Of a stretch of 64,000 bases of DNA, positions 10,081 through 47,805 are shown in pieces (the first letter of the stretch is position 1; every line of letters begins with the position of its first letter). The DNA lies in NCBI GenBank assembly GCA_026984735.1, contig JALSRN010000094.1, forward strand, positions 40,900-104,899, read 5' to 3'. The position numbers and the translations under genes are program-made. Below the pieces are notes generated by a model. It made no database searches. It was not told the DNA's origin and saw nothing but the letters and a program-made list of their open reading frames with translations. This stretch comes from Sedimenticola sp. (lineage in GTDB: Bacteria > Pseudomonadota > Gammaproteobacteria > Chromatiales > Chromatiaceae).

Positions 10081-10103
10081 AAAAAAGCCGGCTTCCAGCC
10101 GGC
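10081..10103 (-). terminator. intrinsic terminator of the small Gly-rich ORF
   Basis: Minus strand GCCGGCT-GGA-AGCCGGC (7-bp stem, 3-nt loop) followed by TTTTTTG. Confidence 0.75.
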
Positions 10104-10128
10104 AATGACGGTACGGTTCTACCGGAAC

Positions 10129-10275
10129 TCAGCCGGGGGAACCACCTCCCCCCGCGCCGCCTCCGGACATGACCGTAATCTCCTCCATTTCCATCCCTTG
10201 GTACAAACTTTTTTTCTTGCGGAAGCCTGACCGGCCTCTTCTGTGATTCTCGAGACACGCAACGAATGCGGTCAT
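10129..10275 (-). CDS. small 48-aa ORF with Gly-rich C-terminus: [48 protein letters not shown]
   Basis: Hand translation; AGGAGGAGGAG SD directly upstream; FNR box and -10 at correct spacing; terminator downstream. Confidence 0.6.
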   Translation of the reverse strand: MTAFVACLENHRRGRSGFRKKKSLYQGMEMEEITVMSGGGAGGGGSPG

Positions 10276-10364
10276 CACTCCTCCTCCTCTCGCTAAATGG
10301 TCACGCCGCCCCGAAAAACCTCCGTGAAATCGGGTAGGAACGACTTTTTGTGAGGTCGATTTCG

Positions 10365-10405
10365 ATTCTAGTGGGCGATCCCGAAATTTACTTGATCCAG
10401 ATCAA
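10365..10405 (-). promoter_or_regulatory. FNR/Anr-type class II promoter: TTGATCTGGATCAA, 21 nt, TAGAAT
   Basis: Perfect TTGAT-N4-ATCAA palindrome at 10392-10405; -10 TAGAAT at 10370-10365 places the box centre at about -40.5. Confidence 0.75.
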
Positions 10406-10504: not shown

Positions 10505-11905
10505 TCAGTGTCCGCCGCCCTTGAGAGCGGTCACCAGTCCTTCGCACACCTCTTTGGCGTCGCCGAAGATAAGGGAACAGTTGTCCTGGTAATAGAGGAG
10601 GTTCTCCACGCCCGAATAGCCGGGTCGCATGGAACGTTTGATCACATAGACGTGACGCGCCTTGCCCACTTCCAGAATGGGCATGCCGTAGATGGGACTG
10701 GAAGGATCGCTCTTGGCCGCGGGGTTGGTGACGTCGTTGGCGCCCACCACCAGGGCCACATCCGCGGTGGCGAACTCCGGATTGATCTCGTCCATCTCGA
10801 AGACGTGATCGTAGGGGATGTCCGCCTCGGCAAGCAGCACGTTCATGTGGCCGGGCATGCGCCCCGCCACCGGATGGATGGCGAATTTCACCTCCACCCC
10901 CTTCTCCTCGAGCAGTTCCATCAGCTCTTTCAGCGCATGCTGCGCTTGCGCCACCGCCATGCCGTAACCGGGAACGATGATCACCTTGTCGGCGTCCTCC
11001 ATCCAATAGATGGCATCTTCCACCGAAGCGGCCTTCACCCCCTTCTGAGCCGCGGCGGCCATGGCGCTGGGGGCTTCGCCCTCCTCGCCGCCAAAGCCCC
11101 CGAAGACCACGTGGAGGATGGAGCGGTTCATGGCGCGGCACATGATGTAAGAGAGGATGGCGCCGGAAAAACCCACCAGGGCGCCGACGATGATGAGCAG
11201 ATTGTTGCCCAAGGTGAAGCCGGTGGCCGCCGCCGCCCAACCCGAGTAGCTGTTGAGCATAGAGATGATCACCGGCATGTCGGCGCCGCCGATGGGAATG
11301 ATGAGGGTGAAGCCGAGCACGAAGGCCAGCGCCGTCATCACCACCAGTGCCCAAAGGCTCTGGTTCACGCCGAACCACACCGCCAGGCCCACCGTCACCA
11401 GCCCCAGCAGCGCGTTGAGAAGATGCTGCCCCGAGAAGACCACCGGCGCGCCGGAGAGGATCCCCTGCAGCTTGCCGAACGCGATCACCGACCCCGAGAA
11501 GGTGATGGCGCCGATGACGATGCCGGCGGAGAGCTCGCCCATGAGCACCGGCGTCAGCCCTCCGCTCTCCACCCTGTTGAGGTAGGTGCCGAGCGCCACC
11601 AGCACGGCGGCCAGACCGACGAAACTGTGCAACGCTGCCACCAGTTGGGGCATGGCGGTCATCTGCACGCGCGCCGCCAGCACCGCGCCGATGACGCCGC
11701 CGATGGCCACGCCGGCGACGATGAAGCCGTAGGAGTCCACCTCCTTGCCCGCCAGGGTGGCGCCGATGGCGATGAGCATGCCGAGCATGCCAAAGAGGTT
11801 TCCCCGCCGGGCGCTGGCCGGGTGGGTCAGCCCCTTGAGGCCGAGAATGAATAGAACCGCGGCGAGCAGATAGGCCAGCGCCTGGGTGTTTGCGGTGATT
11901 TCCAT
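10505..11905 (-). CDS. pntB: NAD(P) transhydrogenase subunit beta
   Basis: Multiple TM segments, GYGMAVAQAQHALKELMELLEEKGVEVKFAIHPVAGRMPGHMNVLLAEADIPYD. Confidence 0.95.
   Translation of the reverse strand: MEITANTQALAYLLAAVLFILGLKGLTHPASARRGNLFGMLGMLIAIGATLAGKEVDSYGFIVAGVAIGGVIGAVLAARVQMTAMPQLVAALHSFVGLAAVLVALGTYLNRVESGGLTPVLMGELSAGIVIGAITFSGSVIAFGKLQGILSGAPVVFSGQHLLNALLGLVTVGLAVWFGVNQSLWALVVMTALAFVLGFTLIIPIGGADMPVIISMLNSYSGWAAAATGFTLGNNLLIIVGALVGFSGAILSYIMCRAMNRSILHVVFGGFGGEEGEAPSAMAAAAQKGVKAASVEDAIYWMEDADKVIIVPGYGMAVAQAQHALKELMELLEEKGVEVKFAIHPVAGRMPGHMNVLLAEADIPYDHVFEMDEINPEFATADVALVVGANDVTNPAAKSDPSSPIYGMPILEVGKARHVYVIKRSMRPGYSGVENLLYYQDNCSLIFGDAKEVCEGLVTALKGGGH

Positions 11906-45861: not shown

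Positions 45862-47805
<1,944 letters not shown>

What the first reader, a model, noticed from the sequence alone, without database searches (positions are those of the whole stretch)
10081..10405. Self-contained FNR-box transcription unit encoding a 48-aa Gly-tailed peptide
Minus strand, seen directly in order: perfect FNR palindrome TTGATCTGGATCAA, 21 nt, TAGAAT -10, an ~83-nt leader, AGGAGGAGGAG Shine-Dalgarno, then ATG. The ORF reads [48 protein letters not shown] and is followed by a 7-bp hairpin and U6 tract. The box centre (about -40.5) matches a class II FNR-activated promoter. The ORF is below the supplied track's size cutoff and is not listed. A basic N-terminal part followed by an acidic EMEEITV and a Gly-rich tail is reminiscent of small regulatory proteins or RiPP-type leader/core architecture. 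I recognise no family and see no modification gene next to it. Inference: an oxygen-limitation-induced small protein or peptide encoded downstream of pntB.
Basis: partly seen in the sequence, partly recalled or inferred. Interest (0 to 1): 0.78.

Follow-up and report, generated by a model that had tools for sequence, protein, structure and literature searches.

The report
Gutted hemerythrin gene keeping its FNR promoter
The 48-residue "peptide gene" is what is left of a 145-residue hemerythrin-like (four-helix, PF01814) gene after an internal deletion: the oxygen-controlled promoter, ribosome site, gene ends and terminator survive, but the Gly-rich tail that drew attention is found in this genome only and evolves without constraint.

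Summary
In detail: FNR palindrome, -10, Shine-Dalgarno, 48-codon ORF and terminator are all there in order. The interpretation needs revision. In the same genus the same slot (downstream of pntB, behind the same FNR-type promoter, before the same terminator) holds an intact 145-aa hemerythrin-like protein (PF01814). Its last 27 codons line up with the last 27 of the 48-aa ORF, stop codon included (KSLRQRMELEENTVIPKLERAEILVTA* against [27 protein letters not shown]). The ORF is therefore an internally deleted remnant, lacking about 97 codons. Two relatives keep a 48/49-codon version with frame, start and Shine-Dalgarno, but not the Gly tail. Four other species hold an independently deleted version with no conserved frame. 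Expression signals are strongly conserved (3/62 sites differ, against 82/190 in the rest). The N-half and Gly tail evolve like neutral DNA; only the last-helix segment is constrained. In the four frame-less species the body is more conserved than synonymous sites, which suggests a regulatory RNA. So this is not a de novo Gly-tailed peptide or RiPP. It is a decayed gene whose oxygen-responsive transcription unit has been kept, in two lineages independently. Whether the retained product acts as peptide, RNA or nothing is open.

The parts
10392..10405 (-). FNR-type palindrome TTGATCTGGATCAA, centre about -40.5
   Evidence: both half-sites kept in all 7 remnant genomes and in most intact genomes
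10365..10370 (-). -10 hexamer TAGAAT
   Evidence: 0 of 6 differ among G000, G012, G008
10276..10358 (-). untranslated leader (predicted start about 10358)
   Evidence: sequence; 34/69 positions differ between G000 and G012, i.e. unconstrained
10278..10288 (-). Shine-Dalgarno AGGAGGAGGAG
   Evidence: AGGAGGAGGAGTGATG 16/16 identical in G000, G012, G008
10210..10275 (-). codons 1-22: remains of the hemerythrin N-terminus (start of helix 1), unconstrained
   Evidence: G012's first 30 nt after ATG match the intact gene 20/30, 0 of 1000 shuffles as good; G000 itself too diverged alone (p about 0.1-0.3) but aligns with G012 without gaps; 25/63 differ
10165..10209 (-). codons 23-37 SLYQGMEMEEITVMS: remains of the last hemerythrin helix (tail core), constrained
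10132..10164 (-). codons 38-48 [11 protein letters not shown]: Gly-rich C-terminus, specific to this genome, neutral
   Evidence: pN/pS 1.33, 0.92, 0.86 in the three comparisons; absent in G012 and G008
10129..10131 (-). stop codon, at the same distance from KSL as in the intact gene
10081..10103 (-). intrinsic terminator, 7-bp stem and T6
   Evidence: 24-26 of 26 positions kept within the clade
10505..11905 (-). pntB (transhydrogenase beta subunit), the syntenic anchor
   Evidence: found in all 15 genomes of the genus

Best explanation
The unit is a former gene for a small hemerythrin-like (HHE, PF01814) protein, made under oxygen limitation through FNR, that lost its core by an internal deletion of about 97 codons. 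What remains is the start of helix 1 joined to the end of helix 4, still behind an intact FNR promoter and ribosome site and ahead of an intact terminator. Shown by comparison: the homology, the deletion, and the conservation of the expression signals. Inferred: FNR still switches the transcript on at low oxygen and the 48-aa fragment is still translated; it can no longer form the four-helix bundle. Because the promoter, ribosome site and terminator are kept while most of the payload drifts, I infer that the short transcript or its helix-4 fragment is still of some use. The Gly tail is not.
For: Intact 145-aa genes sit in the same slot in G007, G004, G009, G003, G014, and one interrupted after about codon 108 in G013. 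The family matches PF01814 above its cut-off (19 of 19 members match) and is predicted as a confident four-helix bundle. Both the tail and the stop line up to the codon, and the C-terminal DNA is shared by intact and remnant genes. G012's remnant also matches the intact N-terminus. No close intact copy is left in the window's genome. The pntB tree puts the deletion in the ancestor of G000, G012, G008 after G013 split, and a second one in G011, G005, G010, G006; one clade of all remnants is rejected (p-AU 1.7e-50). Signals differ at 3/62 sites against 82/190 elsewhere (p = 1e-9; the other two pairs 2e-13 and 8e-14).
Against: G000's own N-terminal half is too diverged to prove homology by itself. 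That G000, G012 and G008 form one clade is not certain (G002 falls inside; p-AU 0.054 against them as one clade), so more than two deletions are possible. Most genomes are metagenome assemblies. No expression data.
Confidence: 0.85

Rival explanations
1. Pure decay: the remnant is a pseudogene with no present function, and promoter, ribosome site and terminator have simply not yet been lost.
For: N-half and Gly tail evolve at or above the neutral rate (40-56% and 42-56% different against 32-44% at pntB fourfold sites). The hemerythrin gene is damaged or lost from this slot several times in the genus: internal deletion twice, a repeat insertion in G013, absent in G002, relocated in G001. An open frame between G000 and G012 has a chance of about 0.29 under neutral change, stops only.
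Against: Signals differ at 3-6% of sites against 43-56% in the rest of the unit; the ribosome site plus start is 16/16 identical in three diverged genomes; the tail core is also slower (p 0.007 to 2e-5).
Confidence: 0.3
2. FNR-activated regulatory RNA: the deletion turned the mRNA into a short stable RNA, and translation is incidental.
For: In the other remnant group G011, G005, G010, G006 there is no conserved frame (1-nt indels, start ATA in G006, a stop before the tail in all; sequences), yet the body differs at only 15-17% against 36-38% at fourfold sites (p about 1e-6 for G005-G010, 3e-6 for G011-G005). It holds a hairpin whose stem is kept while its loop changes in sequence and length. 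FNR boxes and terminator are kept.
Against: In the window's own group the body is not more conserved than neutral except the tail core, the fold is only mildly better than shuffles (z -1.8), the model of the other group barely touches the window, and start codon and frame are kept, which an RNA does not need. GGA (CsrA-type) motifs are not enriched in G000 (z 0.8). No Rfam family matches.
Confidence: 0.3
3. Functional microprotein: the 48-49 aa fragment is kept for its helix-4 segment (L-R-Q-x-M-E-x-E-E).
For: Frame, start, ribosome site and stop kept in G000, G012, G008; only one 3-nt indel in 147 nt; tail core pN/pS 0.31 for G000-G012 and 0.47 for G000-G008, with synonymous sites changing freely.
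Against: Very few sites: synonymous against nonsynonymous p = 0.06 and 0.14. The rest of the peptide is unconstrained.
Confidence: 0.3
4. One reading: a new FNR-induced small protein or RiPP-type precursor with a functional Gly-rich core.
For: Anatomy only; a sub-threshold RamS match (E 0.43).
Against: Homology to the ends of the hemerythrin gene; Gly tail absent in both homologues and neutral; no homologue in 84,980 genomes by the peptide patterns.
Confidence: 0.04

Closest known systems
Hemerythrin HHE family (PF01814), in particular low-oxygen hemerythrins under FNR-type control such as P. aeruginosa Mhr (Anr-regulated, binds O2; described in PMC12403760)
   Same: The intact gene of the relatives matches PF01814 and sits behind an FNR-type promoter.
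   Different: The window's ORF keeps only the two ends and cannot fold as HHE. Even the intact family keeps only part of the usual His ligands (H53, H68, E128 invariant in 19 members), so oxygen binding is untested. Relation to Mhr itself was not tested.
FNR-activated small RNAs such as FnrS of E. coli (named in PMC8595263; its FNR activation is from my own knowledge)
   Same: Short, self-contained, FNR-type promoter and intrinsic terminator.
   Different: No Rfam match; about 280 nt; carries a ribosome site and ORF in the window's group; derived from a gutted protein gene.
Transcribed bacterial pseudogenes (for example M. leprae, PMC2753549)
   Same: A damaged gene with its promoter left.
   Different: Here regulatory signals are far better conserved than the body, and the same gene was gutted twice with both ends and signals kept.

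Membership tests
Hemerythrin HHE (PF01814) | Profile match over the domain | tested here: not met
   48-aa ORF: no PF01814 match. Intact relatives: met, 26.8 bits against 25.3, 19 of 19 match at E 0.01.
Hemerythrin HHE (PF01814) | Four-helix bundle | tested here: not met
   Intact protein: predicted bundle, pLDDT 89.7, closest solved structure 3cax, E 0.008. The 48-aa ORF lacks helices 2 and 3 and most of 1 by alignment; it was not folded itself.
Hemerythrin HHE (PF01814) | Descent from the family | tested here: met
   Shared slot, promoter, C-terminal codons and stop.
FNR regulon member | FNR palindrome near -41.5 of a -10 element | tested here: met
   kept in relatives
FNR regulon member | FNR-dependent transcription at low oxygen | not testable with these tools
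   An FNR with the 4Fe-4S cysteine spacing is encoded; no expression data.
RiPP precursor | Conserved core peptide and a neighbouring modification enzyme | tested here: not met
Core (Gly tail) not conserved. The wider window was not scanned for one.
Known RNA families (Rfam 15) | Covariance-model match | tested here: not met

The most novel reading that the evidence does not exclude
In one bacterial genus an FNR-controlled hemerythrin-like gene was converted twice, independently, by gutting its core into a short low-oxygen-induced regulator: a small RNA in one lineage (frame lost, body conserved) and a translated fragment or dual-function RNA in the lineage of the window.
Probability: 0.3. Interest if true: 0.72.

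Novelty: new variant of a known kind. Interest (0 to 1): 0.42.

Why it matters
It corrects a tempting misreading (a new Gly-tailed peptide) and shows how a gutted gene can look like a new small gene. If the retained transcript is functional, it would be a repeated, traceable case of a protein gene turning into an oxygen-controlled small RNA or microprotein, with intact, gutted and lost states side by side in one genus. Origins of bacterial small RNAs are rarely this visible.

Tried and rejected
RiPP precursor: only a chance-level RamS match (E 0.43) and no conserved core. NCBIfam and Rfam: nothing. Peptide-pattern scan of 84,980 genomes: no relative; a DNA pattern for the tail found only genomes already in hand plus apparently unrelated hits, judged by organism and contig length and not inspected one by one. 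Nucleotide search of the whole unit in the family gave only short chance matches. CsrA-titrating RNA: GGA motifs not enriched in G000 (z 0.8; 1.5-2.7 in the other six remnants). Frame retention as proof of coding: the chance of no stop is about 0.29 for G000-G012, so weak. A single deletion shared by all remnants: rejected. The covariance model of the noncoding group (R1) is confined to this genus and barely touches the window (E 0.38). Looking for FNR boxes upstream of more distant hemerythrin-like homologues: my script recognised only 4 of 23 genes (no box in those 4), so it says nothing.

Full report
What is there. The minus strand carries, in order, TTGATCTGGATCAA (10405-10392), TAGAAT (10370-10365), AGGAGGAGGAG (10288-10278), ATG (10275), a 48-codon ORF ending at 10129, and a 7-bp hairpin with T6 (10103-10081). 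The FNR palindrome is expected 0.01 times in the window and occurs twice; the second copy (47483) lies inside a coding sequence I read as ftsH. The genome encodes an FNR-like protein with the 3-6-93 cysteine spacing of the E. coli protein.

What it is. A protein search in 55 related genomes gave one credible homologue, in G012, at the same place downstream of pntB: 48 codons, MTAVDARHGCCRRSHPGSREDKSLRQRMELEENTVMPGLEPGNPVSSG, without the Gly tail. Fetching the region downstream of pntB in all genomes of the genus showed the answer. In G007, G004, G009, G003, G014 (and up to about codon 108 in G013) the same FNR-type promoter and terminator enclose a 145-aa gene, MTTIADLHRRRRDI...KSLRQRMELEENTVIPKLERAEILVTA, a PF01814 hemerythrin-like protein predicted as a four-helix bundle. 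After KSL there are 24 residues to the stop in the intact protein and 24 in the window's ORF. The DNA of the tail is shared, and G012's first 30 bases after ATG match intact genes 20/30 (0 of 1000 shuffles). The 48-aa ORF is the two ends of this gene with about 97 codons gone. The window's genome keeps no close copy; it has four other, distant PF01814 genes.

Names. Contigs of identical length in a named collection carry the titles Sedimenticola sp. (3,766 bases, as G012 contig 178) and Thiolapillus brandeum (7,231 bases, as G014 contig 431), so the genus is in the Thiolapillus/Sedimenticola group of Gammaproteobacteria. The genus assignment is inference.

History. On a pntB tree the gutted genes fall in two groups: G000, G012, G008 (with G002, which has no gene here, among them and G013, which carries the long gene but interrupted, at the base) and G011, G005, G010, G006, nested among intact carriers. 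One clade of all remnants is rejected (p-AU 1.7e-50). G013's hemerythrin gene is about as diverged from the others as its pntB (fourfold sites 0.44-0.67 against 0.42-0.52), so it does not look like a recent import. Hence at least two independent internal deletions, both leaving promoter, first codons, last helix and terminator. G013's copy is broken by a repeat with at least 40 copies, and G001's copy has moved, with its promoter, to another place. The gene is repeatedly lost in this genus. Remnants without a promoter or ends would not have been recognised, so the similarity of the two outcomes is partly a matter of what can be seen.

What is under constraint. In the window's group, expression signals (box, -10, ribosome site plus ATG, terminator) differ at 3/62, 4/62 and 2/62 sites in the three comparisons, against 82/190, 107/190 and 96/185 in leader, N-half, C-tail and spacer (p 1e-9 to 8e-14). 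N-half and Gly tail change about as fast as the leader. The tail core is slower (p 0.007, 0.004, 2e-5 against that background; only G012-G008 is significant against fourfold sites, p 0.003). pN/pS is 0.31-0.73 in the tail core and 0.86-1.33 in the Gly tail. The three comparisons share branches and are not independent. The Gly tail is therefore not a functional element shared by relatives. In the other group no reading frame is kept, but the body differs at 15-17% against 36-38% at fourfold sites (p about 1e-6), with a hairpin whose stem survives loop changes. With four sequences this is suggestive of RNA function, not proof.

How it most likely works. Shown: origin, deletion, conserved signals. 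Inferred: FNR still drives the short transcript at low oxygen, and in the window's group the fragment is still translated. Whether the product matters as peptide, as RNA, or is on its way out, cannot be decided with three sequences; I give these about equal weight. The three readings are sub-cases of the best explanation, so their probabilities divide it and do not compete with it.

Comparison. The intact gene is of the kind known from low-oxygen hemerythrins under FNR-type regulators (P. aeruginosa Mhr under Anr, PMC12403760), though its metal ligands are only partly those of the family. The remnant itself fails membership (no profile match, no bundle). FNR-activated small RNAs are known (FnrS, PMC8595263); this unit matches none in Rfam.

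Verdict. Observation confirmed, interpretation partly supported. An instructive gene remnant with a conserved oxygen-responsive expression unit; of more interest if the retained transcript proves functional.

Noticed in passing
L075 (G011), L076 (G005), L077 (G010), L078 (G006), region downstream of pntB: An FNR-boxed unit with no conserved ORF but a body more conserved than synonymous sites and a kept hairpin; candidate small RNA, confined to four species.
   Followed up: partly
L068 (G013 contig 184, bases 1-140): The hemerythrin-like gene is interrupted after about codon 108 by a repeat present in at least 40 places, often at contig ends: a high-copy mobile element.
   Followed up: partly
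L082 (G001 contig 243): An intact hemerythrin-like gene with its FNR-type promoter lies away from pntB, next to what looks like rsgA: the gene moved with its promoter.
   Followed up: partly
window 47483-47496: A second perfect TTGATNNNNATCAA, inside a coding sequence that reads as ftsH; probably not regulatory.
   Followed up: partly
L075-L078, about 30 nt upstream of the promoter-proximal box: A second palindrome TTGACATATGTCAA or near copy lies upstream of the FNR box in several relatives; in the window the corresponding stretch is degenerate.
   Followed up: no
A4 (19 homologues of the intact protein): The hemerythrin-like family keeps only some of the usual His ligands (H53, H68, E128 invariant) plus invariant C44, C102, W78, W98; metal binding may differ from classical hemerythrins.
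   Followed up: no
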